This document shows, piece by piece, positions 7,330 through 63,170 of a stretch of 64,000 bases of DNA. Position 1 is the first letter of the stretch; every line of letters begins with the position of its first letter. The DNA comes from Mesorhabditis belari (lineage: Eukaryota; Nematoda; Chromadorea; Rhabditida; Rhabditidae): NCBI GenBank assembly GCA_958450365.1, contig CAUEEP010000759.1, positions 2,028,501 to 2,092,500 on the forward strand, given 5' to 3'. The notes beneath the pieces were generated by a model. It did no database searches and had not been told where the DNA came from. It saw only the letters and a list, made by a program, of their open reading frames with translations. The position numbers and the translations under genes were made by a program.

Positions 7330-8480
7330 CTAGAACACAAACTCTGGCAGCTGCACTTCTGAAAGCTCAAAGCTATGGTACGGCTCAAAAAAGATGCTAG
7401 GGTACCGTAAATTGAGCCTTATCGTACTCTGTGACATCCAGATCGTGCATTGCTTTGTGCCAGAAGGCGATTGTTTATGTGAAAGTACAAAGTACACCTC
7501 TGGCAGCTGACAGCTATGGGACAGTATCTGACAAACGATGCTAGGGTACCGTAAATTGATGCTTATCGTATTGTGTGACATCCAGATCGGGTAACGCTTT
7601 GTGCCAGAAGGCGAGCGCTCATGCGGAAGCACAAAGAACACCTCTGGCAGCTGACAGCTATGGGACAGTATCTGAAAAATAAGCTAAAGTACCGTAAATT
7701 GATGCTTATTGTACTGTGTGACATCCAGATCGTGCATTGCTTTGTGCCAGAAGGCGATTGTTTATGTGAAAGTACAAAGTACACCTCTGGCAGCTGACAG
7801 CTATGGGACAGTATCTGACAAACGATGCTAGGGTACCGTAAATTGATGCTTATCGTATTGTGTGACATCCAGATCGGGTAACGCTTTGTGCCAGAAGGCG
7901 AGCGCTCATGCGGAAGCACAAAGAACACCTCTGGCAGCTGACAGCTATGGGACAGTATCTGAAAAATAAGCTAAAGTACCGTAAATTGATGCTTATTGTA
8001 CTGTGTGACATCCAGATCGTGCATTGCTTTGTGCCAGAAGGCGATTGTTTATGTGAAAGTACAAAGTACACCTCTGGCAGCTGACAGCTATGGGACAGTA
8101 TCTGACAAACGATGCTAGGGTACCGTAAATTGATGCTTATCGTATTGTGTGACATCCAGATCGGGTAACGCTTTGTGCCAGAAGGCGAGCGCTCATGCGG
8201 AAGCACAAAGAACACCTCTGGCAGCTGACAGCTATGGGACAGTATCTGAAAAATAAGCTAAAGTACCGTAAATTGATGCTTATTGTACTGCGTGACATCC
8301 AGATCGTGCATTGCTTTGTGCCACAAGGCGATTGTTTATGTGAAAGTACAAAGTACACCTCTGGCGGCTTAAAGCTATGGTACGGTGTCCGACAAAAGAT
8401 ACTAGGGTACCGTAAATTGGTGTTTATCGTACTCTGTGACATCCAGATCGTGCATTGCTTTCAAAAACTTTCACAAAATC
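7330..8480. repeat. 287-bp higher-order tandem array made of ~144-bp monomers
   Basis: Three nearly identical 287-bp units plus diverged flanking units. Each 287-bp unit is a dimer of two diverged monomers. GTGACATCCAG starts at 7431, 7575, 7718, 7862, 8005, 8149, 8292 and 8436, i.e. spacing alternates 144/143. Each monomer also has a hairpin-forming segment beginning TTTGTGCCAGAAGG 22-26 bp after the box. The open frames inside it are products of the repetition, not genes. Confidence 0.93.
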
Positions 8481-8800
8481 CTTTATGATTACAAGTTTTC
8501 TGAAGGGGTAACGAACTGACAGAAAAACGACTGACTAAATTGACGCTAGGCTAGCGTAAATTGGTGCTTATCGTACTCTGTGACATCCAGATCGTGCATT
8601 GCTTTCAAAAACTTTCACAAAATCCTTTATGATTACAAGTTTTCTGAAGGGGTAACGAACTGACAGAAAAACGACTGACTAAATTGACGCTAGGCTAGCG
8701 TAAATTGGTGCTTATCGTACTCTGTGACATCCAGATCGTGCATTGCTTTCAAAAACTTTCACAAAATCCTTTATGATTACAAGTTTTCTGGAGGGTTGAC
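8481..8800. repeat. 144-bp tandem repeat continuing the phased box
   Basis: Two to three copies of a monomer different from the 287-bp array (it contains AAAACGACTGACTAAATTG). It has the same box at 8580 and 8724, exactly 144 bp apart and in phase with the array before it. Confidence 0.9.
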
Positions 8801-9240
8801 GAACGAGTGCCCAGAAAACTGTTTTGTGCTTTGTTGTAAACATTCCTCATCTGGTGTAAATCATTTCGTGTAAATCTTCTCAAAAATGATTTCAAAAGGG
8901 TAAAGAGGACAAAGTGTTGGCGGAATTTTCAATGCCAAAATCGGGGAACTTCTGAAAACCATAGAATAAGCAGTTTTTCAAAATAAAACCCGAAAATTTA
9001 GGTAAAACTCTTGAAATTCAGTGCGCCAGATGCGTGCGTTTACAATTTTTTCTCGAAATATTCATGTTTTATTCAAGTTAAAGTTATGATTTCAGAATTT
9101 TTCGATCATTTTTTTTTGAGATTCACGTTTTCGTCTTTTCGAAAATTCAAAATTCATTGAATTTTTCATTTTCAAATTTTGACGAGAGTTTTATCAACTG
9201 CAATAAAATAGAGCTTTAAAATTTTGATGTTTTCTAGGAG
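8800..9240. other. Unannotated AT-rich stretch
   Basis: No coding frame, repeat or RNA signature that I can support. Confidence 0.5.
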
Positions 9241-9242
9241 TC

Positions 9243-9512
9243 ATTGAGCTTGCTTGCTTGCTTCCTTCCTTGCTTCCTTGCTTGCTTGCTTCCTTGCTCG
9301 CTTGCTTCCTTGCTTCCTGCTTGCTTCCCTCCTTGCTTCCTTGCTTGCTTCCTTGCTTGTTTCCTTCCTTGCTCGCTTCCTTACTTGCTTCCTTGCTTGC
9401 TTCCTTGCTCGCTTCCTTTCTTGCCTTCTTGCTCACTTCCTTGCTCGCTTCCTTCCTTGCTTTCTGCTTGCTTCCTCGCTACCTTGCTACCTTGCTTCTT
9501 TGTTTGCTTTTT
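9243..9512. repeat. CTTGCTTGCTTCC low-complexity array
   Basis: Pyrimidine-biased CTTGC/TTCC tetranucleotide-type repeat. All frames are open on both strands because the repeat lacks stop codons, so no gene is inferred. Confidence 0.9.
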
Positions 9513-9902
9513 GGATAATATTTAAATCTATCGGTGTGCCAGAAGGCTTGTGTTTATGAACAGAAAAAAAAGCAGACCCAGTTTCCCCGTTTCTCTTTTT
9601 TTTCGATGATTTCACTTCTTTTCTAACAATCAAAGCTCATTTTTTTGATTTACATATGCAATTTTTTCCCGATTTTTTTCGAATCGAGGGTAATTGGATT
9701 CTGATGGGAAAGGGAAACGAAGGGGGAATAAAAGCATTTTTCAGTCGATCATCAAAAAGAATCCCAAAAATTCCCAGGATTTTCCCGAATTTTCCCGAAT
9801 TCTAGATTTTCTAGTACATTTCCTGGCCATTTTACTGAATTTTCTAAACTTTCGTTAACCTTTAATCGTTCTAATCATTCGTTTAGGGTTGTTGATTTGG
9901 TT

Positions 9903-10150
9903 GATTTGCGAAGGTTTTTACAGTGAGCGGATTCGAACCAGCACCCTCAGATTCACAGCCAAGCCCACTAACCACTAGGCCACAAAAAGTTTTGCTTATT
10001 TTAGAGAACTAAAAATCTAGATAGATTTTGTGATATCCAGCTTCAACGAAAACCGCTTTTGTTTCACTCAATTTCCTTTCTTTTCTCTTAAAATTGCGCG
10101 AACTGAGATCACGTAAAAATAAGCCGAAACAGCCTTTCGCAGGCCTTAAT
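9903..10150. mobile_element. SINE-like repeat copy 1 with tRNA-like head on the minus strand
   Basis: The minus strand carries TGGCCTAGTGGTTAG (A-box-like) and GGTTCGAATCC (B box) at about 9922-9984. Rightward follows a conserved body with GATAGATTTTGTGATATCC and a TTTCACTCAATTTCC block. The body recurs at 11421 and 11737. Confidence 0.75.
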
Positions 10151-10479
10151 TTTAAGATTAAGGTTCAAATTGGATGTCACCAATGAAAAAAGGATAGTTG
10201 AAAACCCGAAATCGAGCGGATAATTCAGACGAAAAATGGGCAAGAAATTCACTTTCCCCAACTTCATGTGCGTTCTTTGAGCTCTCCCGTAAACTTCTGG
10301 CTTCTGGCACAGTGGTTTGATTGTCATGTCCGTTTTAGTTACTCAATTCTCTGACTTTGGCGTTCTTTGTGCGTTCTTTGTGCTTCCTCGTAAACGCAAA
10401 CCATCTGGCACACTGGACTTCAAAAGATTGTAGCCTAGCCCATCTTCTTTCCTTTAATGGGTAGACGAATTGCCTGAAT

Positions 10480-10890
10480 CGGTGAGAATCATTGTGCCAG
10501 AAGTCGAGCGTTTACCTGGGAGCACAAAGAACGCAGAAACGCACGGGCCGGTGATAATCGGTGTGCCAGAAGTTGAGCGTTTACGTGAGAGCACAAAGAA
10601 CGCACAAATGCCCTAAACCGGTGATAATCAGTGTGCCAGAAGTCGAAGTTTATCTGGAAGCACAAAGAACGCACAAAACTACTAACCGGTAATGATCAGT
10701 TTGCCAGAAGTCGAGGGTTTACCTGGGAGCACAAAGAACGCACCAAACCACTAACCGGTGATAATTAGTGCGCCAGAAGTTGATCGTTTACTTGAGAGCA
10801 CAAAGAACGCACAAATGCGTTAACCGGTGATAATCAGTGTGCCAGAAGTCGAGCGTTTACTGGGAGCACAAAGAACGCACAAACAGACTA
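10480..10890. repeat. ~69-bp tandem array of GTGCCAGAAG...GCACAAAGAAC motif
   Basis: Six units start with a GTGCCAGAAG-type motif at about 10494, 10563, 10633, 10701, 10770 and 10839. Each contains GCGTTTAC-type sequence and ends GAGCACAAAGAACGCAC, followed by an ACCGGTGATAATCA spacer. It is the second motif of the phased-box family, found here without the box. Confidence 0.88.
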
Positions 10891-11337
10891 TTTACTTGTT
10901 TCCAAAAATTGCTCATCTTGAGCTAAAGATTTTCTCATGAGATTCCAGAATCCATTTCCCCGTCTCTTTCCATTTTTCCCGATCTCTTCGATTTCCCATT
11001 TAACCCTTTTTCCCCTGAGTACTTACCCCAGCTGATGAGTAAATGAAAAAGAAATGAAACTTCCGCTTTCATTTCCTTTTTGAGATTGATTTTGCATGGA
11101 AAAAACTTGTTTTCAAGATTTCCCGCTACGCCAGACAGCCAGTGTTTTTGTTTACAATTGGTTTAAATAAAAAAGTTTTTTTGGAATCTCCCTGAAAATT
11201 CAGTTCAACACTTTTCTGAGCGTTCTTCATTTTTCCATACAAACGTGCGCACTCTGGTGCACCGGAAAACTCTAGCTTTGCTAGCTTTGCTCAGCTCTAA
11301 CTCGACCGGAGTTGATTTTAGCCAAAGCAAAAATATT

Positions 11338-11640
11338 TTGACAGTGAGCGGCCTCGAACCAGCACCCTCAGATTCACAGCCAAGCCCACTAACCACTAGG
11401 CCATAAAAATTTTTGCTTATTTTAGAGAACTAAGAGTTTAGATAGATTCTGTGACATCCAGCTTGAATGAAAAACGCTTTAGTTTCACTCAATTCTTTTT
11501 CGTTTCTCTTAAAACCGCATGAACTGAGATCACGAGAAAATAAGCTGAAACAGGCAAAATTAAAGCTAAAGAAAATGCTATACATAAATCCTGGAACGCA
11601 CTGAATCTTTAGCAATTATTAGTAGCTGAAAATGAGCAAT
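11338..11640. mobile_element. SINE-like repeat copy 2 with tRNA-like head on the minus strand
   Basis: The tRNA-like head (about 11341-11403, minus strand) closely matches the one at 9922. It is followed by the same body, with CTGTGACATCCAGC at about 11450, down to GTAGCTGAAAATGAGC. Confidence 0.75.
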
Positions 11641-11945
11641 ATTTTCGATGGCGCAGTGGGTCAAGCAAAGATTTTCCAGGCGGAGGGTCGCTGGTTCGAG
11701 TCCGGTCACCGCCAGAAGTTTGCTTTTTTTTAGAAAAAACGGTTTAGATAGATTCTGTGACATCCAGCTTGAATGAAAAACGTTTTTGTTTCACTCAATT
11801 TCCTTTCATTTCTCTTAAAATTGCGCGAAATGAGATCACGGGAAAATAAGCCGAAACAGGCAAAATTAAAGCTAAAGAAAATGCTATTCATAAATCCTGG
11901 AACGCACTGAATCTTTAGCAATTATTGGTAGCTGAAAATCAATTG
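11641..11945. mobile_element. SINE-like repeat copy 3 with a different, plus-strand tRNA-like head
   Basis: The plus strand has ATGGCGCAGTGGGTCAAG (A box) and GGTTCGAGTCC (B box) at about 11647-11714. The body that follows (11737-11940) is the same as in copies 1 and 2. Head identity and orientation therefore differ between copies while the body is constant. Confidence 0.75.
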
Positions 11946-12340
11946 GACTCCAACGTACGCTGTGACATCCAGAATGAGCAATACTTTTAGAATTTTGATC
12001 CTTTTTACTTGTAAAAGATCAACTAAAGCCCAGGTCCAAGCTACTTCGAATCAAAAGAGCACAGCTCCTCAATTTTTGCATTTTCTGAAGAGTTTTTTTC
12101 TGAAGAAATCCTAATTGACAAATATTTCGTCATTTTTGAAAAAAACCCCACTCATGCAGAGATTCTAAACGTTTTGGGCACTCTGCTCAAGCCTATTCTC
12201 TAGATCTTTTTTTCTATTCCTATTTCTATTTCTATTTCTATTCCCCAAATCTATTTTTACTACTTTTTCCTATATAAACTTTACTATTTTTTTGCTCATT
12301 TTCTGTAAAATCCCTTTTTTTACTCATTTTTTATTTATTT

Positions 12341-12354: not shown

Positions 12355-12370
12355 GGTTTCCACATCAGAA

Positions 12371-13791: not shown

Positions 13792-13824
<33 letters not shown>

Positions 13825-14643
13825 TCCTTTCTTTCCTTTCTTTCTTTCCTTTCTTTCTTTCATTAGAATGATTCGTACAGCTGGCCAATCATAAATGTAC
13901 AGCTAGCCAATCACAAATGTCTAGCTAGCCAATCACAAACGATTCGTCCAGCTAGCCGTCCAGCTAACCAATAATCATTTTTACAATAATTTCCAGGCGG
14001 TGTGCCAAGTGATCGCTTTTATCGAGTCAATTTCTACGATGCTCCTTTTGAGAAACGATCTGAACAGGTGGTTACTGTAGATTGTTCATAGATCATAGAC
14101 GTTCATTTGTACTGTAGGTTTGGGTACTGTAACGGCTTAGGCTTAGGCTTAGGCTGGCTTAGGCTTAGGCTCAGGCTTAGGCTTAGGCTTAGGCTTAGGC
14201 TTTGGCTTAGGCTTAGACTTAGGCTTAGGCTTAGGCTTAGGGCTAAAGGTTTATATAATCTAGAAAATTACTGTAAAAGTAAAGAGATTAGAGAATCGAG
14301 ATAATTCAATTTTGATTCAATTTTCGATGATTTCCTGTTTAATTTGTTTAATTTGTTTAATTTATTCAACTTTTTCAGGCTCTCCGTTTTCTTGAACGTC
14401 CCACTCGACGCGATTACAATATTTGGCTAAAACGATTGGGGAAAAGAGCGGTTTGAGTTTGAAATCGAAATCTGAATCATATTTAGAAAAGATTCTAAAA
14501 GCTAAGAGTCTAAAAGCTAAGATTCTAAAAAACTCAAATTACATTACAATTTGATCTCTTAATCTTTCCAGGATCGAAATGCCCGTTCAAAAGATTTTGG
14601 AAGAGTTTGGCTGAAGAAACTTGGAAAAAGAATGCTTATGTAA
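12371..14643 (+). CDS. Secreted neuropeptide precursor with two predicted amidated peptides
   Basis: Exons: 12371-12421, 12623-12659, 12704-12763, 13997-14067, 14379-14450, 14572-14643 (TAA), giving 120 residues. The start MFALRSFCRDLFFLVAL resembles a signal peptide. Dibasic processing sites follow: RSRR, EKR, TRR, GKR and GKR. The two GKR sites predict C-terminal amides on DYNIWLKRL and on a peptide ending RVWLKKL, so the mature peptides share a W-L-K-[RK]-L-amide end. A longer spacer peptide starts SVPSDEW and contains FYRVNFYDAPFE. AATAAA is at 14652. The fourth intron is filled with TTAGGC-type repeats and the third holds two CTATC-type arrays and a MITE. I do not recognise it as a named flp or nlp family, and no receptor is implied. 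Confidence 0.85.
12430..12590. repeat. GAATTGAATTGGAGAATTG array, first intron of the neuropeptide gene
   Basis: A GAATTG-based unit repeated about 14 times between the first two coding exons. Confidence 0.85.
12772..13440. repeat. 17-bp GATGATAGGTAGCTGTT array with head-to-head inversions, split by a MITE
   Basis: Forward units run 12772-13005, inverted units 13006-13044. A MITE follows (13045-13279), then forward units 13280-13355 and inverted units 13356-13440. The array is thus palindromic at two points, and the MITE sits at one of the inversions. Confidence 0.85.
13045..13279. mobile_element. 235-bp MITE of the long-TIR Tc1-like family
   Basis: Ends in TA on each side, with inverted ends CAGTACTGGACAATG...CATTGTCCAGTGGTG. 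The ends and interior match both ends of the larger element at 26377-27643, of which this is an internal-deletion derivative. Confidence 0.85.
13795..13865. repeat. CTTT microsatellite
   Basis: A run of TTTC units in the third intron of the neuropeptide gene. Confidence 0.9.
14128..14245 (+). repeat. Interstitial TTAGGC (nematode telomere-type) array
   Basis: GGCTTA units with few variants fill most of the intron between exons 13997-14067 and 14379-14450. TTAGGC is the usual nematode telomere repeat. Confidence 0.85.
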
Positions 14644-16400: not shown

Positions 16401-16405
16401 GGACA

Positions 16406-41929: not shown

Positions 41930-42600
41930 GTTCTTCTTGAATGGAAATTGATAAATCCAATATTCCCATTGAATTCTCCATCCCGAAAAACCCAAATTCC
42001 CAAATTTTCAGCAAAATTCCTTCAATTTTGACGATTTTTTGACGTTTTCCGTTTTTTGGGTAATTAAACCGGACAGCAAGGGGAAGGGGTTGATGAGCCA
42101 TGTGCCAGAAGGCCCGCGTTTACGGGAACGCTCAAAGTACACAGCCAAAGACTAGCTAGTACAGTACTAAAAAAACTACAATACTAAAAACTACGTCAAG
42201 GTACGTAATTTGGACTGCAATGTACGCTGTGACATCCAGAAAGCTCAATACCGTTGAAATTTTAGTACTTTTGACGGGAGAGGACAAAGAACACCTCCGG
42301 ACAGCCAACGACTAGCTAGTACAGTACTAAAATCAGTCAAGTGCCGTAAATTGGATTCCAATGTACACTGTGACATCCAGATAGCTCAATAGCGTTAAAA
42401 TTTTGGTCTTTTTTAAGAGAGAGTACAAAGTACAGCTCTGAACGGCTAACGACCAACTAGTACAGTACTAAAACCAAAGTCAAGTTACGTAAATTGAACT
42501 CCAACATACGCTGTGACATCCAGAATGAGCACCCCCACTTGGCGGCAAGCGGTGAGCTAAAAGGGATGCGTTTACAAGCGAGCACAAAGAACGCGGGTTG
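41930..42600 (+). repeat. Dispersed composite repeat, copy 1, with phased boxes
   Basis: Starts with an ATTCTCCATCCCGA / ATTTTCAGC block, then GGGTAATTAAACCGGACA, then GTGCCAGAAGGCCCGCG. Three GTGACATCCAG boxes follow at 42229, 42370 and 42513. The same order recurs at 50005-50545 and, reversed, at 59105-59600. Confidence 0.85.
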
Positions 42601-43160
42601 AATTGGGTGATTTTAAATGAAAATTGCTTCTAAAAAGGGATTCTGGCTAGATATTGAAGAAGTTTTTTCGATACCATTGTGCCAGAAGGGTTGCGTTTAC
42701 GAGCACATCGCTAAATGTGATTCCAATTCGATCTCTGGCTAGAGTTTCGATTCGAAATCCCCTTTTCCATTTCCTCAAAAGATTCCCCTGCATTGGATGA
42801 TCCTTTTGTGAATCGAAAATCCAATTTTTTACCCATTTCTATCCCTCTTTTCCTTCTTTTTCTTCTTTTCTTTCTTTTCCTTCTTTCCCTTCCTTTCCAT
42901 CATCCTTTTTCTGGCATTCACCCTCAAAGCCACGTTTGCGCGCGAAATCGTTTCCAATCAACCCCCTTCTAAGCATCAATTTCATTCCTAACCAAGAGAT
43001 TTCTTTTTAAAACTCTCCTTTATAACATTTGTCTTAAGAATTTTTATGTAAACCCGCCTTTTGCCATAGAAATATATCAAAAAAGTCTTTCGATCCACCC
43101 CTTTCGTCACCCCTCCAGAAAACTCGTAATAATAAAGGCTTTTGTGAAAATTTTTAAAAG
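42600..43160. other. Intergenic stretch with one isolated GTGCCAGAAG motif
   Basis: GTGCCAGAAGGGTTGCG near 42680, then a TTCTTTTCC polypyrimidine tract at 42845-42900. No gene seen. Confidence 0.5.
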
Positions 43161-43161
43161 C

Positions 43162-43490
43162 AATGCACGATCTGGATGTCACACAGTACGATAAGCATCA
43201 AATTACGGTACCCTAGCATCTTTTGTCAATTATCGTACCATGGCTTAAAGCCGCCAGAGGTGTTCTTTGTACTTTCCCGTAAACGTTCACCTTCTGGCAC
43301 AAAGCAATGCACGATCTGGATATCACAGAGTACGATAAGCATCAATTTACAGTACCCTAGCATCTTTTGTCAGATACTGTTCTCTAGCTGTCAGCTGCCA
43401 GAGGTGTACTTTGTACTTTCGCGTAAACAATCGCCTTCTAGCACAAAGCATTGCACGATCTGGATGTCACAGAGTACGATCAGCATCAAA
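43162..43490 (-). repeat. 144-bp phased-box array, minus orientation
   Basis: Related to the 7330-8480 array but inverted. CTGGATGTCAC-type boxes start at 43172, 43316 and 43460, exactly 144 bp apart. GCACAAAG and CTTTGTAC hairpin halves lie between them. Confidence 0.9.
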
Positions 43491-43564
43491 TTACGGACGA
43501 TAAGAATAAATTTGGTCAGTCGATATTAGAAGTTCTTGGATTGGTTTAAAACTCTAACTTTGAC

Positions 43565-43974: not shown

Positions 43975-44460
43975 ATGCACTTTTTTAGGACAAATTAACT
44001 TGTGGCCAAAGCCAAGCCTTAAGCCAAGCCTTAAGCCAAGCCAAGCCAGGATATGGCCAGACAACATTTTTCTGTATTTCTATGACATTTAATACTAGAT
44101 TCAGCACTGGGTTTGGCCAAGCAACAGCCTAGAACGACTTAAATGCCATTGTGGTCCCATTTGTGGTCCCATTGCAAAATGTGGTCCCATTTGTGGTCCC
44201 ATTCCAAAATGTGGTCCCATTTTTGACTCAGCCCTAGTTCAACTTTTTAAGCGATAGATAACAGTAGGTATTAACAGTAGGCACAGTAGGCAAACAATAC
44301 GGTGACATCCAGGATTTAGAGAAATGAAAAATAATTTGGACTAGAGCGGCTTTAAATGCAGATTTCGAAGTAGTCCTGGTTCCAGCTCTAAATCCAACTT
44401 TTTAAACGATAGATAAGTATTATCAATCCCGAATTATCTGGTGACATCCACGAGTTCGAG
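43975..44460. repeat. Minor repeats and two diverged phased boxes
   Basis: AAGCCAAGCCTT units (43998-44045), a GTGGTCCCATTT unit (44150-44225), and two GTGACATCCA boxes at 44302 and 44441 inside diverged ~140-bp monomers that share AGATAA/AACGATAGATAA sequence. Confidence 0.75.
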
Positions 44461-49000: not shown

Positions 49001-49008
49001 TGCGCAGA

Positions 49009-50004: not shown

Positions 50005-50545
50005 AATTGCGCAAATCTAGCATTGCCATTGAATTCTCCATCCCGAGAAACCCAAATTCCCAAATTTTCAGCCAAATTCCTTCAATTTTGACGATTCTAG
50101 AGAGTTTTCCGTTTTTTTTTTGGGTAATTAAACCGGACACCAAGGGAAAGGGGTTGATGAGCCGTGTGCCAGAAGGCCCGCGTTTACGGGGACGCATAAA
50201 GTACATCTCTGAACAGTCAAAGACTAGCTAGTACAGTCAAAGTACAGTACTAAAGGATTAAGGCAGGGCACGTAAGCTGGACTCTAACGTACGCTGTGAC
50301 ATCCAGAACGCGCAATGCCTTCGAAATTTTGGTCTTTTTAAAGAGAGAGTACAAAGTACAGCTCTGAACGGCAAACGACCAACTAGTACAGTACTAAAAA
50401 CTAAGTAAAGGTGCGTAAATTGGACTCCAATGTACGCTGTGACATCCAGAATGCTCAATCCCGCGCGGTGGAGAGCCATGTGCCAAAAGGCGTGCGTTTA
50501 CAGGCGAGCACAAAGAACGCGGGGTGACTTGGGTGATTTTGGATG
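50005..50545 (+). repeat. Dispersed composite repeat, copy 2
   Basis: Same block order as 41930-42600, including GGGTAATTAAACCGGACA and GTGCCAGAAGGCCCGCG. Boxes lie at 50296 and 50439 (143 bp). It ends in a GCACAAAGAACGCGGGG motif. Confidence 0.87.
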
Positions 50546-51090
50546 AAAATTGCTTCTAAAAAGGCTAGAAATTCGATAAATTAGATAAATCGGAGCTTCG
50601 GAAGGCGTGAGCACAAAGTAAATGATGCCTAGGAACAGGTGTCCCTTTTCTTTTTTCATTTTCTAAAAGCTCTCCACAAAGCGGCCGTTTTCCACAAAAA
50701 AACTTTCGTTTACGAAAACTTTCAAAAGTTCTTTTGAGGCAAAGATCTTTTCCATTTATCCGGCTTATTATCTAGAGCTCATGCTCACGCTCGTGCTCGC
50801 CAGCTTGCTTGTAAAATAATCCTTTATGTTCTCTGAATTTGTGAGCTTCAAAATTCAAACTTCAAATTTTTTCTTCACAAGATTTCCATGCTTCATTGAA
50901 TTTCCCTAAAATAGCCAAAAAAATCATGAAAAAGCTGAAATAGCCAAAAGAAATCAAAAGAAATCTAGCTGTTTTTAACGGAAATGACCGAATTCTCCGC
51001 ATTTTCACAAATATTTTGATTCATTTTTGCAAAAACATCAAACCCAAGCCGCTTTGAGAGGTTTTCCAGTATAAAATCATCCGGTCCAGT
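50545..51090. other. Unannotated stretch
   Basis: AT-rich. A GCCGTTTTCC segment and AAAGAAATC repeats; no gene seen. Confidence 0.5.
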
Positions 51091-51905
51091 TTGTTTAAGA
51101 GGAAATTGGCCAATATGGATGTCACACTAGATTTTCAAAATTAGAAAATCGGTATTTATGCAACTTAGGCACTTGGGTAATTAAGCCGGACGGTAGCTGG
51201 GTATCCTTTGCTATATTTTGAACGTCAATCCGGTTGTTTAAAGGCAAAAATAGCCAATCTGGATGTCACACTAGATTTTCGAAATCATAGAATCGCTATT
51301 TAAGCAGCTTAGGCACTTGGGTAATTGAGCCGGACGGTAGCTGGGTATTCTTTGCTATATTTTGAAAGAAAATCCGGTTATTTAAAGACCAAAATGGCCA
51401 ATCTGGATGTCACACTAAATTTTCGAAATCATAGAATTGCTATTTAAGCAACTTAGGCACTTGGGTAATTGAGCCGGTCGGTAGCTGGGTATTCTCTGGC
51501 ATTCTTCGTACAACAATCCGGTTATTTAAAGACCAAAATGGCCAATCTGGATGTCAAACTAGATTTTCGAAAACATAAAATCAACATTTATGCAACTTAG
51601 ACACTTGGGTAATTAGTGTACAGAGGGGTTCCCCGTATTTCTTATATAATTTGTACGACAATCTGGTTGTTTAAAGACCAAAATGGCGAATCTGGATATC
51701 ACACTAGTTTTTTAAAAATAGACAATCGGTATTTATGCAACTTAGACACTTGGGTAATTAAACCATATTCTTTCTCTGGGATTCCCTGGTACTTTGTACG
51801 TCAATCCGGTTGTTTAAAGACCAAAACGGCTAATCTGGATGTCACAATAGATTTTCGAAATCATAGAATTGCTATTTAAGCAACTTAGGCACTTGGGTAA
51901 TTGGA
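51090..51905. repeat. Six-copy 144-bp satellite with phased box
   Basis: The monomer contains AATCTGGATGTCACACTAG, a CATAGAATCGCTATTTA stretch, GCACTTGGGTAATTGAGCC and AATCCGGTTGTTTAAAGACC. Box starts are 51115, 51259, 51403, 51547, 51692 and 51835 (spacing 144, 144, 144, 145, 143). Apart from the box and GGGTAATT, the monomer is unlike the 7330-8800 monomers. Confidence 0.93.
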
Positions 51906-55200: not shown

Positions 55201-58200
55201 TTCCATCAAAATCTAAGGAAAAGCTTTTGAAAGGAAAAGCTTTTGAAAACAAAATCTTGACCAGGTTTTGACCAGGTTAGGCTGATCTTGACGAGAAGCT
55301 GATCTTGATGAGAAGCTGATCTTGATGAGAAGCTGATCTTGACGAGAAGCTGATCTTGACCAGGTTTTAAGCTTTGAGGATCAAGCTAGATTTAAATTCT
55401 AGCTAGATCATTGAAAACATGGAAAATTGACTTAAACAACTGTTTCTTTTTCTGCATTCTTTTCATTTGCCGTCATTCTTTTGAACAATTTTAGCGGTAA
55501 TTTAAAAAGTTTTAGAAAATTTAGAAAATTTAGACAATCTAAAAGATTTCCTTTTTAAGATTTCCTTTTTAAGATTTCCTTTTTAAGATTTTCTTTCTCT
55601 TTTAAAATTTCTCTGAAAAAATGGGTGCGGCTTTCTTTGATTGATCACTCGATGGGGAACTCTTTGATAACCTTTTTAGATATTTATTGTTAATCCAAAG
55701 TTATCCAAATTTATCCAATGATATCCAAAGCTGTTTTTTAGCTTTAAAATTCATTTCAATGTCTTTATAGTGTACTTTGTGTGCTCCATAAACGCACAAA
55801 GTACACCATAAAGATCTTAATGCTTCATTCAATAAGAGATTGAACAAATTAACGCTTGGACAGCTTGAAAAAGCACTTGTTTTTGCAAAAGCTTTCTTAA
55901 ATTGATTGAAACTCTTTTTGTGCGCTCTTTTTATGAATTTTGAGAGGAATTGAAAGGGATTCTTTGAGAAAAGACAAAAACCGGGTTAACGATCTTGAGG
56001 AATTGAGGGGAGAGTCGTATTGCCATATTTACATAAATTGCCATATTTACAAAAAGACTTACCAGTAATTTTTTCTTATAAGCTCTGTCTGAATTTCTCG
56101 ATTCCTTCAGCTGATTCTTCTTCTTCTCATCATCATCACCATCATCTTCTCCTTCTTCTTCTTCTTCTCCTCCTTCCTCTTCTCCTTCTCCTTCTTCTTC
56201 TTCTTCTTCTTCTTCTCCTTCTTCTTCTCCTTCTTCTCCTCCTTCTTCTTCTCCTTCTTCTTCTCCTTCTTCTTCTCCTCCTTCTTCTTCTTCTTCTCCT
56301 CCTTCCTCTTCTCCTTCTTCTTCTCCTTCTCCTTCTTCTTCTCCTTCTCCTTCTCCTCCTTCCTCTCCTCCTTCTTCTCATCATCATCATCTTCCTCTTC
56401 TTCTTTCTTTAACCCCTTAATCCATTCAATTCACATACAGATCCATTCACATACCCGAATTTCTCCTAGCAAAATGGTGTCGTAAAATCGAGAAAGAAAG
56501 GGTATCTTTTCAATGGAATGGCCTTGTATTCTTTCTCTTTTCTTTCGATAGACAGGGTTGTATCATCGACTATTTCCTTTCCCTTTTCAAGGCAATACGC
56601 ACTCATAACAGCATAGTAAGATTAGATTGAAATAGAAACAGAGAATCCTCTCCTTCTTCTTCTTCTTCTCCTTCTTCCTCTTCTTCTTCCTCTCCTTCTT
56701 CTTCTTCCTCTTCTCCTTCTCCTTCTCTTTTCCTTCTATTCTTTTCCATTTCTGGTTTGAAGTTGATTAAAATTCTTGCTGTTTTTCATTTTCCCAATTG
56801 TTAATCTCTTGAACTGAAGCTCAAAAACTGTCTTCTTAATTGCTCATGTTGTTTGAACCAATTGTTGCTTAGGTTGTTGCTTGGCATTGAAACCAAGCAA
56901 CAATCTTAGTCTTGGTTTCAAAAATCTTGGTCTTGGTTTGAAGCCAAGATCAAGTACAGGCTTTAGCCAAATTCTAGAGAGCTCTTTATCAAGCTTTTCA
57001 TTGAAATCCATCAATCAGTCTCACCCATTAATCTTCAGCTATTGTCTCGCTTTTGTTTCGCTTTTGTTTCGCTTTTGTTTTTGCAAAATCTTAATAAACT
57101 TCTCTCTCAGCATGCCTGCGAGAGAACCGTTTTATTTCCCAAAAAAAGCATCACTTTTCCCAAAGTCTTCATCAAATTCATCAAATGATTCAAAAAGAGT
57201 CATCATCCGGATTATCCCGATCACAATGGTACTGTAGAAAAGATAAATCAATATATATTTGTTAACAAATCAATTCCCTTAGGTTGGCGGTGAGATGCCG
57301 ATCGGCGAGTGCACTGTGCTAAGAGATCGACCTGCAATGCGACTCGACTCGAGATTAGTTTGCAAGTATGAGATACTCTCCGTCATCGGGAAAGGATCAT
57401 TCTCACAGGTTTGCTTTAGATCTATAGGTTTGCTATAGGTCTATAGGTTTAGAGTCTAGAGCATGCTCAGGTCAGAGTTCGGAGTCGTTCTAGACCTTGG
57501 GTCGTTCTAGACCTTGGGTCGTTCTAGACCTTGGGTCGTTCTAGACCTTGGGTCGTTCTAGACCTTGGGTCGTTCTAGACCTTGGGTCGTTCTAGACCTT
57601 GGGTCGTTCTAGACCTTGGGTCGTTCTAGACCTTGGGTCGTTCTAGACCTTGGGTCTTGGGTCGTTCTAGACCTTCTCTAGACCAGAGCTTTGATCTGGG
57701 TTTAGATGCAACCGAATCTGACTTTGGATTCGGATCAAGGATCTAGAGAAGGTCTAGAGAAGGATTGGATCTAGCTCAGTCAGCTCTAGTCAAGCTCTAG
57801 TCTAGCTCCATTCCAGCTCTAGTCCAGCTCTAGTCCAGCTCCAGATCTGGTCATTGGTTGAGCAGGAGGGCTTTAGCTTGACTTGGTTTGACTGTTTTAT
57901 CTGCTTAGATATATCCAGGCCAAGTACGCCACAAAACTCCGTAAAACATCTTCATTCCAGGTGCTCCGGGTACAGCATCGAATCTCGAGGACGTATTTCG
58001 CGGTGAAACTTGTGGCGGCTGATTGCGGAGCTGTAAGTTTAGCTTATCGCTAAGAACTATATCCCATTTCCAGGTCAACAACGAATTGCACATTCTCAGC
58101 CGACTCCAGCATCCGTATGTGATTCGGCTAGAGGAGGTAGAAATCTTGCAGTCAGTTCTAGGCGCGGCTAGGAGCTCCTAGGCCCTCCTAGGCGCTCCTA

Positions 58201-61200
58201 GCCGGTCCTAAATGGTCCTAACCGGTCCTAATCGATTCTGGTCGATTCTAGTCGATCCTCATTGGTCCTAATCGATCCTAGTCGGTCCTAGACGGTCCTA
58301 GTCGGTCCTAATCGGTTCTAGTCGATCCTCATTGATCTTAGTCGGCCCTAGTCGGCTCTAGTCGGCCCTATTCGGTCCTAGTCAGCCCTAGTCGACCCTA
58401 GTCAGCCCTAGTCGACCCTAGTCTGTCCTAATCAATCCCAAAGCTCTCTTAAAGACAAATCTATTCTTTTAGGTCTTTAAATCGTCATCCCGTTTATTTA
58501 TTGTGATGGAGTTAGCATCGGGTGGTGAAATGTATGATCGAGTGGTGGCTAAAGGACGATACAGTGAACAAGAGGCGAGAGCGGCGCTGAAAGTCAGTGG
58601 AAATGGAAATATTGCTCAAAGCTAGTCAAGCTCTTGCTCTTGCAAAGCTCTTGCTCTTCCCAAGCTCTTGCCCAATTTCAATTCGGATATTCAGATGCTT
58701 CTCTCTGGCCTTGCCTACCTCCATTCAATTCGCGTCACTCATCGAGATCTCAAGCCAGAGAACCTCTTGTATGCGGATACTAGACCCGAGTCGAGGTGAG
58801 ACTTGTCTTACTGTAGCTAAGACTACTGTAGCTAGATTACTGTAGCTGTACTATGAGAATTTTCTTTCATTTTTAGATTACTCATCACCGATTTCGGCCT
58901 CGCTCACCAGGCGACCCGTTCCGGCGAAACGATGACGGAAACGTGCGGAACACCCGAGTATATCGCACCGGAATTGTTGCTCAGAGTACCGTACACCGAT
59001 AAGGTAGATAAATCTATAAAATTATCTAAAAATTCAAAAGTTACCGTAATCCAATCCACCCAACACCCTCCTCCCAGTTAACTGACCTTTTGCAAGGAAA
59101 AAATACCAAAATTTTAACTGCATTGCGCGTTCTGGATGTCACAGCGTACATTAGAGTCCAATTTACGTACCTTGACAGTTTTTAGAACTTTACTAGTTAG
59201 TCGTAGGCTGTCCAGAGGTGTTCTTTGTACTCTCTCATAAAAGAGAGCAAAATTTCGAAGGCATTGCTCATTCTGGATGTCACGGCGTACGTTAGAGTCC
59301 AATTTACGTGCCCTGCCTTAATCCTTTAGTACTGTACTCTGACTGTACTAGCTAGTCTTTAGCTGTTCATACGTGTACTTTGTGCGTTCTCGTAAACTTT
59401 CGCTTTTTGGTATACTGCTCACCGCTTTACACCGCGGTTTAATTACCCAAAAAAAAGCCAAAAAAACAGAAAAGCTCTCTAGAATCATTAAAATTAAAGG
59501 AATTTTGCTAAAAATTAGGGAACTGGGGGTTTTGGGATGGAGAATTGATGGGAATTGATGGGAATTGATGGGAGTTGATGGGAGTTGATGGGAGTTGATG
59601 GGAGTTGATGGGAATTTGATGGGGATTGATGGGAATTTAATGAGAATGTTACTATTGCTTAGTTATGTGAAAGAAATTGATTGGTTTAATTGCCTAATCT
59701 TTTCAGGTGGACACGTGGGCTGTTGGTGTGATTGCGTACATTTTAATGTCGGGAATCATGCCGTTTGATGACGATTGTCGGAGTCGGCTTTATACGCATA
59801 TTATTACAGCTAACTATGTCTACTATCCACAGGTGGGAGTGATGTGGTTGGATGGAGGGATGGATGGAGCTAGAGCTAGAGCTAGAGCTAGAGTCTAGAG
59901 TCTAGAGTCTAGAGTCTAGAGTCTAGAGCTAGAGCTAGAGCTAGAGTCTAGAGGCTAGAGTCTGGAGGCTAGAGCTAGAGTCTAGAGGCTAGAGTCTAGA
60001 GGCTAGAGCTAGAGTCTAGAGGCTAGAGTCTAGAGGCTAGAGCTAGAGTCTAGAGGCTAGGAGTCTAGAGGCTAGAGCTAGAGTCAGAGGCTAGAGTCTA
60101 GAGGCTAGAGCTAGAGTCTAGAGGCTAGAGCTAGAGTCTAGAGGCTAGAGCTAGAGTCTAGAGGCTAGAGCTAGAGTCTAGAGGCTAGAGCTAGAGTCTA
60201 GAGGCTAGAGCTAGAGTCTAGAGGCTAGAGCTAGAGTCTAGAGGCTAAGCCAGAGTCTAGAGGCTGAGTCTAGAGGCTAGAGCTAGGAGTCTAGAGGCTA
60301 GAGCTAGAGTCTAGAGGCTAGAGTCTAGAGGCTAGAGCTAGAGTCTAGGAGGCTGGAGTCTAGAGGCTAGGAGCTAGAGTCTAGGAGGCTAGAGCTAGAG
60401 TCCAGAGGCTAGAGTCTAGAGGCTAGAGCTAGAGTCTAGAGGCTAGAGTCTAGAGGCTAGAGCTAGAGTCTAGAGGCTAGAGCTAGAGTCTAGAGGCTAG
60501 AGTCTAGAGGCTAGAGCTAGAGTCTAGAGGCTAGAGTCTAGAGGCTAGAGCTAGAGTCCAGAGGCTAGGAGTCTAGAGGCTAGAGCTAGAGTCTAGAGGC
60601 TAGAGTCTAGAGGCTAGGAGCTAGAGTCCAGAGGCTAGGAGTCTAGAGGCTAGGAGCTAGAGTCTAGAGGCTAGAGTCTAGAGGCTAGGAGCTAGGAGTC
60701 TAGAGGCTAGAGTCTAGGAGGCTAGAGCTAGAGTCTAGAGGCTAGAGTCTAGGAGGCTAGAGCCAGAGTCTAGAGGCTAGGAGTCTAGAGGCTAGAGCTA
60801 GAGTCTGGGAGGCCAGAGTCTAGAGGCAGAGCAGAGTCTAGAGGCTAGAGTCTAGAGGCTAGAGCTAGAGTCTAGAGGCTAGAGCTAGAGTCTAGAGGCT
60901 AGAGCTAGAGTCTAGAGGCTAGAGCTAGAGTCTAGAGGCTAGAGCTAGAGTCTAGAGGCTAGAGTCTAGAGGCTAGAGCTAGAGTCTAGAGGCTAGAGCT
61001 AGAGTCTAGAGGCTAGAGCTAGAGTCTAGAGGCTAGGAGTCTAGAGGCTAGAGCTAGAGTCTAGAGGCTAGGAGCTAGAGTCTAGAGGCTAGAGCTAGAG
61101 TCTAGAGGCTAGAGTCTAGAGGCAGAGCTAGAGTCTAGAGGCTAGAGCCAGAGTCTAGAGGCTAGAGCTAGAGTCTAGAGGCTAGAGTCTAGAGGCTAGA

Positions 61201-62862
61201 GCTAGAGTCTAGAGGCTAGAGCTAGAGTCTAGAGGCTAGAGCTAGAGTCTAGAGGCTAGAGTCTAGAGGCTAGAGCTAGAGTCTAGAGGCTAGAGCTAGA
61301 GTCTAGAGGCTAGAGTCTAGAGGCTAGAGCTAGAGTCTAGAGGCTAGAGTCTAGAGGCTAGAGCTAGAGTCTAGAGGCTAGAGTCTAGAGGCTAGAGCTA
61401 GAGTCTAGAGGCTAGAGTCTAGAGGCTAGAGCCAGAGTCTAGAGGCTAGAGTCTAGAGGCTAGAGCTAGAGTCTAGAGGCTAGAGTCTAGAGGCTAGAGC
61501 TAGAGTCTAGAGGCTAGAGTCTAGAGGCTAGAGCTAGAGTCTAGAGGCTAGAGCTAGAGTCTAGAGGCTAGAGCTAGAGTCTAGAGGCTAGAGCTAGAGT
61601 CTAGAGGCTAGAGCTAGAGTCTAGAGGCTAGAGCTAGAGTCTAGAGGCTAGAGCTAGAGTCTAGAGGCTAGAGCTAGAGTCTAGAGGCTAGAGTCTAGAG
61701 GCTAGAGCTAGAGTCTAGAGGCTAGAGCTAGAGTCTAGAGCTAGAGCTAGAGTCTAGAGCTAGAGCTAGAGTCTCTTTCTTCATTCTCTTCTCTTTAGCT
61801 CTTCTTTAGGTCTTCTTCCTATCTTCTTCCTATCTTCTTTCTATCTTCTTCCTATCTTTAATATTTAGTTTTTTTATAGTTTTGGTCAGGATCAGAGTTG
61901 GCAAAGACGTTTGTTGACAGTTTATTGGAGACAAACGCTGGGGAGAGGCTGACTGCAACACAAGCATTGCAACATGATTGGATTGTTGGTGAGTGGCATT
62001 TACTCCCTTTACTTCCCTTTACTTCCCTTTGCTTCCCTTTACTTCCCTTTACTCCCTTTACTATCTAGTTCACTGAATTTGACTGAGTAGAAGGGAGTTT
62101 TAGATTCGGAGAAATCGATTCCTGTGCAGTAGAGGACTTGCGTTTACTCCCTGTTTGATATTACTCCCAAAGTACCCCCTGTTTCACAATTCCTGTGAAA
62201 CAGGGAATCCTTTGAAACAGGACTGGCCGATTTTCTCACTCAAATCTCATCCAATTCAATTCTCTAGGCTCTCACCGTAAACTATGGAAAGCACAGCGAT
62301 ATTTAAAGCTAATAAATCGAAGCCAGTACCATAAGACAAGTCCTAGGTCTAGAGCTCTTCTGAGTCTAGAGCTCTTCTGAATCCTGGAGCTGGTGCCTAA
62401 GCCAAAAGTGTCAGCCACTAGACTAAACTATAAGAAAATGTTTTCAGGAGAGACTCGCACAGCCTATCCAATCAAATCAAGACCGTCTAGCGAGTATAAC
62501 GCTATGCAAAGGGTATGTTTTTGTGTAGATAATGTAGTTAAAAGTCTAGTGAAAGTCTAGTGACAGTCTAGTAAAAGTCCTGCAATTTCCAGCTCTCAAA
62601 TTTACAGACAAAATCGACGAGATCGATCCGCTCAGTTACTCGATCCGATCACGGACACCGCGTTGATCCAAGGTATATTGTGACTCGGCTACCGTAACCC
62701 TAGTACTATTGTACTATTGTACTGTTGTACTGTTGTACTGTTGTACTGTTGTTTTGAAAGAGTACGGTAGAAGACTGAACATTTGTTTCCAGAGAAGTCG
62801 ACCAACTCGCGCAGGATCTTAAAAAAGCCGCTCAATCGACGAAACATTATGGAGTGTTTTGA
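52279..62862 (+). CDS. PSKH1: PSKH1-like serine/threonine protein kinase (CAMK group), complete
   Basis: Exons: 52279-52317, 53004-53090, 57283-57408, 57961-58032, 58074-58136, 58473-58592, 58695-58795, 58877-59003, 59707-59832, 61880-61988, 62448-62512, 62593-62672, 62793-62862 (TGA), giving 394 residues, close to the 424 of human PSKH1. The start MGSSQSHPQSS fits N-myristoylation (PSKH1 begins MGCG), so membrane or Golgi targeting is plausible. Kinase landmarks: RLVCKYEILSVIGKGSFSQ, YFAVKL (Lys), NNELHILSRL (Glu), HRDLKPENLL, ITDFGLAHQ, CGTPEYIAPELLLR, DTWAVGVIAYILMSG, MPFDDDCRSRLYTHI, GERLTATQAL. All catalytic residues are present; human PSKH1 has HRN where this has HRD. The Arg/Ser-rich tail resembles the PSKH1 tail. 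The 4.2-kb third-exon intron and the 2-kb intron inside the kinase C-lobe consist largely of tandem repeats. Confidence 0.92.
52325..52385. repeat. AGAGCT hexamer array, PSKH1-like intron 1
   Basis: Ten AGCTAG/AGAGCT units directly behind the first splice donor. Confidence 0.92.
52568..52885. repeat. 10-bp GGAACTCTA/GGAACTCCA array, PSKH1-like intron 1
   Basis: About 30 units of AACTCTAGG, AACTCCAGG and AACTCTAGT. Confidence 0.92.
53290..53945. repeat. GAGCCTCGAGCCTAGAGCTCATA array and 21-bp GCATCCAGGCTGAGCTAGCTA array
   Basis: The first lies at 53298-53395, the second (eleven units) at 53703-53930. Between them is a GC-richer, non-repetitive segment (about 53400-53695) without a recognised function. 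TTAGGC units close the block at 53936-53958. Confidence 0.88.
54355..54565. repeat. AAGCTCTAAAGCTAT array
   Basis: 7-8 bp AAAGCTAT/AAAGCTCT units, PSKH1-like intron 2. Confidence 0.9.
55262..55400. repeat. AGCTGATCTTGATGAGA array shared with pde-1 intron
   Basis: Five units plus the right flank GATCTTGACCAGGTTTTAAG and CAAGCTAGATTTA, matching 3652-3915. Confidence 0.88.
56112..56412. repeat. CTT/CTC polypyrimidine tract (triplex-prone)
   Basis: About 300 bp of CTTCTTCTC. Poly-Leu and poly-Arg open frames in it are artefacts. A shorter copy lies at 56650-56735. Confidence 0.95.
57478..57672. repeat. 18-bp GGGTCGTTCTAGACCTTG array
   Basis: Ten almost perfect units, PSKH1-like gene. The unit contains the palindrome TCTAGA. 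Confidence 0.95.
58165..58435. repeat. 10-bp GTCGGTCCTA array
   Basis: About 26 degenerate units between exons 58074-58136 and 58473-58592. Confidence 0.92.
59105..59640 (-). repeat. Dispersed composite repeat, copy 3 (reversed), inside the PSKH1-like gene
   Basis: Reverse complement of the blocks at 41930-42600 and 50005-50545. Boxes CTGGATGTCAC start at 59132 and 59273 (141 bp). It ends in the GGTTTAATTACCC motif and a TGATGGGAGT array (59545-59630). It lies in the intron 59004-59706. Confidence 0.87.
59860..61775. repeat. 1.9-kb CTAGAGGCTAGAGCTAGAGT array inside a kinase-domain intron
   Basis: An 18-30 bp higher-order unit of AGTCTAGAGGCTAG and AGCTAG permutations. The block from about 60240 to 60840 has many single-base insertions (GGAGCTAGG); its flanks are cleaner. 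Confidence 0.95.
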
Positions 62863-62984
62863 GGTGAAAAAGAAATTCTAGAAGCTTCTAGAAATTCTAG
62901 AAGCCTTCGCGTAATTGAAAGGCTTTCGCTGACCGTTTACAAGTTTAACTGACCGTTTACAAGTACAACTGATCAAAATTTAAA

Positions 62985-63170
62985 CGCTATTGCTCATTCT
63001 GGATGTCACAGCGTACATTGAAGTCCAATTTACGGCACTTGACGGTTTTTAGAACTTTACTAGCTAGTCGTTGGCTGTTCAGAGATGTACTTTTTACTCC
63101 CTCGTAAACGCGCGCCTTCTAGCACACCGCTTATCACACGTTCTGGATCTCACACAGTAGGATAAGCGTG
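62985..63170 (-). repeat. Phased-box pair 3' of the PSKH1-like gene
   Basis: CTGGATGTCAC at 62999 and CTGGATCTCAC at 63143, 144 bp apart, with the CTAGCTAGTCGTTGGCTG and GTAAACGCGCGCCTTCT motifs between them. Confidence 0.88.

What the first reader, a model, noticed from the sequence alone, without database searches (positions are those of the whole stretch)
7431..63154. A CTGTGACATCCAGA box recurs at 139-148 bp phase in unrelated satellite arrays
I count about 34 copies of a GTGACATCCAG-like box in either orientation. In arrays the spacing is almost fixed: 144,143,144,143,144,143,144,144,144 at 7431-8724; 141,143 at 42229-42513; 144,144 at 43172-43460; 143 at 50296-50439; 144,144,144,145,143 at 51115-51835; 141 at 59132-59273; 144 at 62999-63143. 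The intervening sequence differs strongly between, for example, 7331-8480, 8481-8800 and 51090-51905, yet box and period are kept. This is like the CENP-B box in alpha satellite: a short protein-binding site held constant at about nucleosome length while the monomer drifts. A sequence-specific protein, nucleosome phasing or a replication mechanism acting on the box would explain it. The function is inference.
Basis: partly seen in the sequence, partly recalled or inferred. Interest (0 to 1): 0.87.

Follow-up and report, generated by a model that had tools for sequence, protein, structure and literature searches.

The report
Nucleosome-sized DNA modules around a box
What looks like a nematode genome holds many copies of a short DNA word that sits at the centre of roughly nucleosome-sized modules, often about 142 letters apart even where the surrounding sequence is unrelated, which suggests that the word and its spacing are kept by selection, perhaps for packing chromosomes.

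Summary
In this genome (207.6 Mb) the 14-mer with up to one mismatch occurs 1454+1369 times against 12+7 for the reversed pattern. Exact 11-mer pairs 129-159 bp apart number 722+657, against 6+10 at 160-190 bp. In the sampled, box-rich DNA 62 of 64 tandem arrays of period 136-150 carry the box, and its core changes three times less than the rest of the monomer. Spacing of 139-145 bp persists between neighbours with unlike flanks, tandem or convergent, though not divergent. Two things are new. A+T content oscillates in fixed phase to each box, as expected for a nucleosome centred on it, over about 110 bp; this held in 55 of 56 boxes of held-out stretches and in 45 of 45 isolated boxes. And tRNA-like A/B-box elements lie only on the box's 5' side (53 of 267 array 5' ends, 0 of 267 3' ends). 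Best reading: a box-centred, nucleosome-phasing module in TFIIIC-marked chromatin. Whether it serves heterochromatin, holocentromere or meiotic pairing is undecided. Boxes are patchy: none in 30 kb of unselected DNA.

The parts
7389..8804 (+). Tandem array, 10 boxes (7429, 7573, 7716, 7860, 8003, 8147, 8290, 8434, 8578, 8722), spacing 143-144; the monomer body changes after about 8460 while box and period stay
9922..9989 (-). tRNA-like element (A box and B box on the - strand) on the 5' side of the box at 10028; ends approximate, read
10028..10041 (+). Box (24 bits), with a weak convergent box at 10169-10182 (-, 13 bits), centres 140 bp apart
11343..11410 (-). tRNA-like element on the 5' side of the box at 11449; ends approximate, read
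11449..11603 (.). Convergent pair of boxes, 11449 (+) and 11590 (-), centres 140 bp apart
11647..11714 (+). tRNA-like element between outward-pointing boxes 11590 (-) and 11755 (+); ends approximate, read
11755..11973 (.). Boxes 11755 (+), 11896 (-) and 11960 (+)
42177..42525 (+). Array of second family, boxes 42227, 42368, 42511 (141, 143 bp)
43157..43494 (-). Array of first family in reverse, boxes 43171, 43315, 43459 (144, 144 bp)
44300..44313 (+). Single box, 2 mismatches, 23 bits
48139..48152 (+). Weak single box, 12.5 bits; may be chance
50294..50450 (+). Pair of boxes 50294, 50437 (143 bp), second family
51091..51903 (-). Array of third family, 6 boxes 51114-51834 (144,144,144,145,143 bp); flanks unlike the other window arrays
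59131..59285 (-). Pair of boxes 59131, 59272 (141 bp), second family
62998..63155 (-). Pair of boxes 62998, 63142 (144 bp) with unlike flanks

Best explanation
Each box is the centre of a DNA module of about 110-120 bp shaped to wrap round a nucleosome or nucleosome-like particle, with the conserved core GTGAC(A/T)TCCAG at or near the dyad, where a sequence-specific protein probably reads it. Modules are set 139-145 bp apart, in tandem or face to face, which leaves little or no linker. tRNA-like elements carrying A and B boxes (likely TFIIIC sites) lie on the 5' side of modules and cap part of the arrays. Shown: box, its constraint within arrays, spacing, A+T phase, polarity of the tRNA-like elements. 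Inferred: that the particle is a nucleosome, that a protein reads the core, that TFIIIC binds the tRNA-like elements, and the purpose (phased, demarcated repressive chromatin, or a chromosome-segregation platform built from it).
For: Weight matrix: 525 sites at 11 bits or more against 3 for the reversed matrix in 265 kb, the DNA it was trained on; 57 against 0 in 16 kb of held-out stretches, also chosen at boxes. 62 of 64 arrays of period 136-150 carry a box of 8 bits or more, 0 of 128 in control scans. Mismatch to the array consensus: core 69 of 2650, rest 1851 of 24025; core lower in 55 of 62 arrays. Among neighbours with unlike flanks 90-199 bp apart, 31 of 50 tandem and 18 of 47 convergent pairs lie at 139-145 bp, expected 3.2 and 3.0. 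Genome-wide pair counts 722+657 at 129-159 bp and 6+10 at 160-190 bp. A+T wave phased on the box on both sides, 0 of 500 random rotations as strong; peaks at about -38, -29, -18, -7, 14, 22, 32, 43, 54, 64, roughly symmetric about position 8, the middle of the core, fading beyond about -45 and +66. Many of these positions favour A and T alike, as expected of bending rather than descent. Held-out stretches: 55 of 56 boxes, A+T 0.803 at predicted peaks against 0.565 at troughs; random positions 0.50. Isolated boxes: 45 of 45 (not independent of the sites that defined the peaks). tRNA-like elements: 38 of 47 have an upstream box within 140 bp, all 38 pointing outward; downstream 17, of which 15 out and 2 in. 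Words counted without assuming tRNA give the same asymmetry: TCGAACC in 35 of 170 5' sides and 1 of 167 3' sides.
Against: No chromatin data. DNA without boxes in this genome has a 10-12 bp A+T periodicity of its own, at least as strong in autocorrelation (0.064-0.084 at lags 10-11) as the module flanks (0.036-0.049); only the fixed phase to the box is special. The centre fits position 8 or, half a helical turn away, about 13; only the first has the canonical nucleosome phase. The wave reaches further downstream than upstream. A 147-bp nucleosome does not fit a 141-144 bp repeat without partial unwrapping. One array family (L014, also L036) carries a second, reversed box 37 bp from the first, which one particle per box does not explain. 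Divergent neighbours do not favour 139-145 (5 of 37, expected 2.4, p 0.08); 13 of 37 are at 149-153. Related arrays and haplotypes make the neighbour pairs less independent than the counts suggest. Helical quantisation of other spacings was not significant. Some outer positions prefer A over T or the reverse (for example -49, -48, -39, -36, -35, -18, 29, 32, 36), so part of the wave may be descent. The 46.5-bp offset to tRNA-like elements (28 of 47) comes from seven spacer groups, two of which make up 23 of the 28, with median spacer identity 0.40 against 0.31 for shuffles. 214 of 267 array 5' ends have no tRNA-like element detected.
Confidence: 0.55

Rival explanations
1. Holocentromere unit: the modules carry the centromeric histone and the box plays the role proposed for the conserved boxes of Meloidogyne satellites.
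For: Probably a nematode; a conserved short box in otherwise divergent satellites is the arrangement described for Meloidogyne (passages), and the title of a 2021 paper links tandem repeats with a 19-bp box to the centromere histone (seen in reference lists; the paper is not held). The A+T wave spans about 110 bp, near the length wrapped by CENP-A particles (recalled). CENP-B/Tc5-type DNA-binding domains are abundant: 150 matches, all that were scored of 497 candidates.
Against: Boxes are patchy: 0 in five unselected 6-kb stretches, and the first 100 exact-box hits, up to C491, fall on 26 contigs (capped list), whereas a diffuse centromere should have sites along every chromosome. [quoted passage not shown] The Tc5-type matches may be transposons, and none is tied to the box.
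Confidence: 0.2
2. Pairing-centre-like platform: clustered copies of a short motif read by HIM-8/ZIM-type zinc-finger proteins for meiotic pairing.
For: In C. [quoted passage not shown] Boxes here are regionally clustered.
Against: The passages read mention no ~143-bp period or motif-phased A+T wave in pairing centres. Chromosome positions are not known here, and HIM-8/ZIM homologues were not searched for.
Confidence: 0.12
3. Mobile-element debris: the box is an end or body motif of a short element family (tRNA-derived SINE or MITE) that has been amplified in tandem; spacing and box are inherited.
For: tRNA-like elements between outward inverted boxes look like an element with inverted ends; spacers fall into few groups; flank families recur on different loci.
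Against: A tRNA-derived SINE begins at its tRNA head, so it should not carry a motif at a fixed distance upstream. Convergent boxes at 139-145 bp with unlike flanks do not come from tandem duplication. A+T preference without base identity at many positions is not what descent leaves. 143 of 526 sites, taken greedily, have mutually unlike flanks.
Confidence: 0.13
4. Signal or hallmark of germline-limited DNA and programmed DNA elimination, with boxes marking satellite-rich eliminated regions.
For: The one protein match that hints at the genus is from Mesorhabditis belari. A Caenorhabditis preprint says that satellites make up much of the eliminated DNA in ascaridids and Mesorhabditis and reports short motifs at elimination sites in Oscheius and Caenorhabditis (passages).
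Against: The motifs described there mark break sites, not thousands of periodic copies. No germline/soma coverage data here. The genus assignment rests on one match covering 7% of the query; a second query gave none.
Confidence: 0.07

Closest known systems
Conserved Box 1 (CENP-B box-like) in divergent satellites of Meloidogyne (PMC3694981, PMC9673304; passages read)
   Same: Nematode; a short box kept in satellites that are otherwise 32-74% alike; box also at switches between monomer types
   Different: Here: many more unlike contexts, isolated boxes, both orientations, 139-145 bp spacing between unlike neighbours, a box-phased A+T wave and tRNA-like caps; none of these appears in the passages read. 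The box sequences were not compared directly; only the human CENP-B box was
19-bp box of CenH3-associated tandem repeats in Meloidogyne (Despot-Slade et al. 2021; only the title seen, in reference lists)
   Same: By its title: a short box shared by tandem repeats in a nematode
   Different: CenH3 link not testable here; sequences not compared because the paper is not held
CENP-B box of primate alpha satellite
   Same: Short site repeated at roughly nucleosome scale in a drifting monomer
   Different: Sequence match 10 of 17, reached by 14.6% of shuffles; 6 of 9 essential bases (essential pattern recalled); about 143 bp, not about 171 bp (recalled); box here also outside satellites
Extra-TFIIIC sites / CeRep3 tRNA pseudogenes of C. 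elegans (PMC6950938; abstract and sections 6 and 11 read)
   Same: Clustered elements with both A and B boxes, many of them putative tRNA pseudogenes
   Different: No box-centred modules are mentioned in what was read; TFIIIC binding is inferred here from sequence only
Periodic An/Tn Clusters of C. elegans (PMC9071541; passages read)
   Same: A/T periodicity of about 10 bp (the period is recalled) in a nematode genome
   Different: Here the wave is phased on a sequence box and ends after about 110 bp
Pairing-centre motifs (HIM-8/ZIM) of C. elegans (passages)
   Same: Copies of a short motif concentrated in some regions of a nematode genome
   Different: No ~143-bp period or phased wave mentioned in the passages read; motif sequences not compared

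Membership tests
Satellite with conserved box (Meloidogyne type) | Short box conserved among otherwise divergent satellite monomers | tested here: met
   62 of 64 arrays with box; core mismatch 0.026 against 0.077
Satellite with conserved box (Meloidogyne type) | Confined to satellite arrays (my reading of the type) | tested here: not met
   45 boxes have no other box within 260 bp and show the same A+T wave
CENP-B box | Sequence similarity to the 17-bp CENP-B box above chance | tested here: not met
   10 of 17; 14.6% of 2000 shuffles reach it
CENP-B box | Bound by a CENP-B-like protein | not testable with these tools
   150 Tc5/CENP-B-type domain matches exist in the genome, but binding cannot be tested
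Holocentromere repeat | Spread along all chromosomes | tested here: inconclusive
   0 matrix sites in five unselected 6-kb stretches; first 100 exact-box hits, up to C491, on 26 contigs (capped list); contigs not assigned to chromosomes
Holocentromere repeat | Carries CenH3 | not testable with these tools
   no ChIP data
Nucleosome-positioning module | A+T periodicity of about 10 bp in fixed phase to a centre | tested here: met
   the periodicity itself is also present in box-free DNA
Nucleosome-positioning module | Positioned particle in vivo | not testable with these tools
   no MNase data
Extra-TFIIIC site | A box and B box at tRNA-like distance without a tRNA gene | tested here: met
   47 elements, 0 in one mononucleotide shuffle of each sequence; ARAGORN finds one tRNA in the same DNA, not near a box
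Extra-TFIIIC site | TFIIIC bound without Pol III | not testable with these tools
   no ChIP data
Pairing centre | Motif enriched at one end of each chromosome | not testable with these tools
   no chromosome-scale assembly; contig positions only
tRNA-derived SINE | One consensus starting at the tRNA head, with the shared motif inside it | tested here: not met
   an outward box lies upstream of the tRNA-like head in 38 of 47; 24 groups of tRNA-like bodies

The most novel reading that the evidence does not exclude
A DNA-encoded chromatin fibre: thousands of autonomous, box-centred modules, each holding one nucleosome-like particle with a protein reading its dyad, laid at 141-144 bp and capped by TFIIIC-type tRNA-like elements in a fixed polarity, so that the genome writes out array start, direction and spacing while the rest of the sequence is free to drift.
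Probability: 0.3. Interest if true: 0.92.

Novelty: new variant of a known kind. Interest (0 to 1): 0.82.

Why it matters
Which sequence features constrain satellite DNA, and whether nucleosome-scale periods are functional, is an old question that is hard to test because monomers of one family are all related. Here many unlike sequences share a box, a spacing and an A+T phase, so descent and function can be told apart. Isolated modules give single sites on which nucleosome positioning and protein binding can be measured directly, and the tRNA-like caps suggest a link between TFIIIC sites and array polarity in nematode chromatin.

Tried and rejected
Chance: rejected. Only recent duplication: rejected by unlike tandem and convergent neighbours at 139-145 bp. 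Known RNA: no Rfam match in the window; in five box-rich loci one tRNA match just over its gathering score (L025 7662-7719) and five matches far below theirs. True tRNA genes: one ARAGORN call in 265 kb, over 1 kb from the nearest box. A coding reason for the period was not tested beyond noting that 143 is no multiple of three. Helical quantisation of the secondary spacings: not significant. Similarity to the human CENP-B box: within chance. Searching papers for the core: 107 papers hold one of four 11-mers; the 20 listed titles are unrelated to satellites, the other 87 were not seen. I found no description of this box in the paper searches, of which I saw listings; the library lacks most subscription papers, among them Despot-Slade et al. 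2021. Rey et al. 2023 on Mesorhabditis did not come up or 89 and was not looked up by id. Pfam on ten open frames from box-rich loci and the window: kinase and phosphodiesterase in the window, nothing over its cut-off in the others. Grouping of 5' spacers was confounded because the cut included part of the box; one search replaces it. Flank clusters depend on the threshold.

Bias to keep in mind: all 20 stretches, and L001, were taken at places where one search listed an exact box, and the matrix was trained on these and the window. Partial controls: arrays found by TRF without using the box, but in the same stretches; four stretches not used in training, also chosen at boxes; five unselected stretches on contigs C152, C159 and C569, no site. 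Of 526 matrix sites, 143 remained after dropping sites cut by a locus end and sites with flanks like one already kept. L002-L008 were dropped because they overlap L009-L010.

Full report
Setting. The window is C569:2028501-2092500 of a genome of 207.6 Mb in 714 contigs; C569 is 3.76 Mb long. It is probably a nematode: TTAGGC-type runs (that this is the nematode telomere repeat is recalled) and an open frame on contig C59 whose only match among 5.8 billion proteins is from Mesorhabditis belari, 85% identical over 7% of its length. A second query gave none. A Tc-like transposase in the window has several Caenorhabditis relatives, but its best named matches are from a spider and a bee, so it says little. 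I call the genome Mesorhabditis-like with low confidence. The assembly may hold both haplotypes in part, since C77 and C701 carry hits at similar distances.

Observation. Genome-wide the 14-mer with up to one mismatch has 1454+1369 places against 12+7 for the reversed pattern. Pairs of the exact core 129-159 bp apart number 722+657, reversed control 0+0; at 160-190 bp there are 6+10. Of the first 100 pairs listed, 94 are 139-145 bp apart.

Constraint. I fetched 20 stretches of 9.9 kb at places with an exact box. With the window and L001 this is 265 kb. A matrix over positions -8 to +23, trained on this DNA, finds 525 sites at 11 bits or more, the reversed matrix 3; the last round gave 526. Its consensus is roughly AAWNTCTNYTGTGAMHTCCAGRWTGNNCAAA, with TG and TCCA nearly invariant. 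Among tandem arrays of period 100 bp or more in this DNA, 52 of 75 have a period of 139-148 bp, 2 of 130-138 and 1 of 149-160; a further 356 arrays have shorter periods. Of 64 arrays of period 136-150 found by TRF, 62 carry a box at 8 bits or more, and 0 of 128 control scans do. Copies differ from their array consensus at 69 of 2650 core positions and at 1851 of 24025 others; the core is lower in 55 of 62 arrays. Between neighbouring monomers (203 pairs) the core differs at 0.071 and the flanks at about 0.20, though those sites were chosen by the matrix.

Spacing without similarity. I compared the flanks of neighbouring boxes with a null from boxes on different loci and kept neighbours at or below its 95th percentile. 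Among those 90-199 bp apart, 31 of 50 tandem and 18 of 47 convergent pairs lie at 139-145 bp, where 3.2 and 3.0 are expected. Divergent neighbours do not (5 of 37, expected 2.4); 13 of 37 lie at 149-153 bp. Related arrays recur, so these pairs are not all independent. Convergent pairs do not arise by tandem duplication, and duplicates old enough to have lost flank similarity should have gained indels (inference). This is the main reason to prefer constraint over shared ancestry.

A+T wave. In 143 sites with mutually unlike flanks the A+T content is phased on the box with a 10.0-bp period on both sides; none of 500 sets of random rotations came near it. Peaks lie at about -38, -29, -18, -7, 14, 22, 32, 43, 54 and 64 and fade beyond about -45 and +66; they are roughly symmetric about position 8, the centre of the core. 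Distances from that centre are about 6, 15, 25, 36, 46 and 56 bp, where the minor groove faces the histones in a nucleosome centred there (textbook knowledge). A centre near 13 fits the symmetry equally but not that phase. Many of the strongest positions use A and T about equally; some, such as -49, -48, -39, -36, -35, -18, 29, 32 and 36, do not. In four stretches not used in training the predicted peaks have A+T of 0.803 and the troughs 0.565, with 55 of 56 boxes in the expected direction and random positions at 0.50. All 45 boxes with no other box within 260 bp show it too, so it is a property of the single module. Against overreading: box-free DNA of this genome has a 10-12 bp periodicity of its own, with autocorrelation of 0.064-0.084 at lags 10-11 against 0.036-0.049 in module flanks. 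What is special is the fixed phase to the box.

tRNA-like elements. 47 elements have an A box and a B box at tRNA-like distance; shuffled sequences have none; ARAGORN calls one tRNA in the same DNA. 38 of the 47 have a box within 140 bp upstream, all pointing away from the element, 28 of them with the box centre 46.5 bp from its approximate end; 17 have one downstream, 15 pointing away. At array ends, with a looser tRNA-like pattern, 53 of 267 5' ends and 0 of 267 3' ends have such an element; the other 214 5' ends have none detected. Word counts made without assuming tRNA find the same: TCGAACC in 35 of 170 5' sides and 1 of 167 3' sides. The 46.5-bp offset rests on seven spacer groups, two of which make up 23 of 28. 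In the window this arrangement can be read at 9.9-12.0 kb.

Distribution. Boxes are clustered. Five 6-kb stretches taken without regard to boxes, on contigs that do carry boxes, had none. The first 100 exact-box hits, up to C491, fall on 26 contigs. An 18-mer occurs 23 times on 12 contigs. The 16 wide pairs fall on seven contigs, seven of them on C688. I could not place contigs on chromosomes.

Interpretation. The simplest account of box, spacing, phase and isolated modules is a DNA module that positions a nucleosome-like particle and is read by a protein at its centre. The tRNA-like elements resemble the C. elegans extra-TFIIIC sites, which carry both A and B boxes, often overlap putative tRNA pseudogenes (CeRep3) and cluster near H3K9me3 regions of autosome arms (PMC6950938, abstract and sections 6 and 11). 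That favours demarcated heterochromatin as the setting. Holocentromere and pairing centre remain open. Against the particle model stand the 37-bp reversed box pairs of one family, a repeat shorter than 147 bp, and the lack of any chromatin data.

Relation to known systems. Meloidogyne satellites with a conserved CENP-B-like Box 1 (PMC3694981, PMC9673304, passages) are the nearest in kind. The passages read mention no box-phased wave, no isolated modules and no tRNA-like caps. Membership as a CENP-B box is not supported.

Noticed in passing
window 10480-10884, also about 10280-10420 and inside the monomers at 7.4-8.3 kb and 43.2 kb: A second shared stretch, roughly GTGCCAGAAG..CGAGCG..TTA....GAGCACAAAGAACGCAC, forms its own 69-bp minisatellite, occurs singly, and also lies inside monomers of the first box family (by eye).
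   Followed up: no
window 14134-14241 (GGCTTA)n; 4599-4682; 4734-5282: Interstitial telomere-like TTAGGC-type run and related short minisatellites inside a 3.76-Mb contig.
   Followed up: no
L014 1900-3200 and 8060-9050; L036: Array monomers with a forward box and a reversed box 37 bp apart (105 + 37 = 142 bp), a palindromic variant of the module.
   Followed up: partly
G000, 150 scored places: Abundant CENP-B/Tc5-type DNA-binding domains (PF03221), some in long open frames; a pool of candidate box-binding or transposase proteins.
   Followed up: partly
C77:45698-52331 and C701:1645053-1651045: Hits at similar distances suggest that the assembly may hold both haplotypes for part of the genome.
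   Followed up: no
window 1-64000: Very dense short minisatellites: 224 rows (some overlapping) by Tandem Repeats Finder in 64 kb.
   Followed up: no
G000:C688: One 1.3-Mb contig holds 7 of the 16 genome-wide core pairs at 160-190 bp spacing, spread over 670 kb; it may be unusually rich in boxes.
   Followed up: no
L013 2033-3592 and 8764-9900: Two copies of an open frame; the one searched has a single database match, a Mesorhabditis belari protein with kinase domains.
   Followed up: partly
window, centred near 6859 (-): A tRNA-like A/B-box match with no box within 500 bp (nearest box centre 577 bp away).
   Followed up: no
L029-L033 and box-free parts of the window: General 10-12 bp A+T periodicity in box-free DNA, reminiscent of the Periodic An/Tn Clusters of C. 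elegans.
   Followed up: partly
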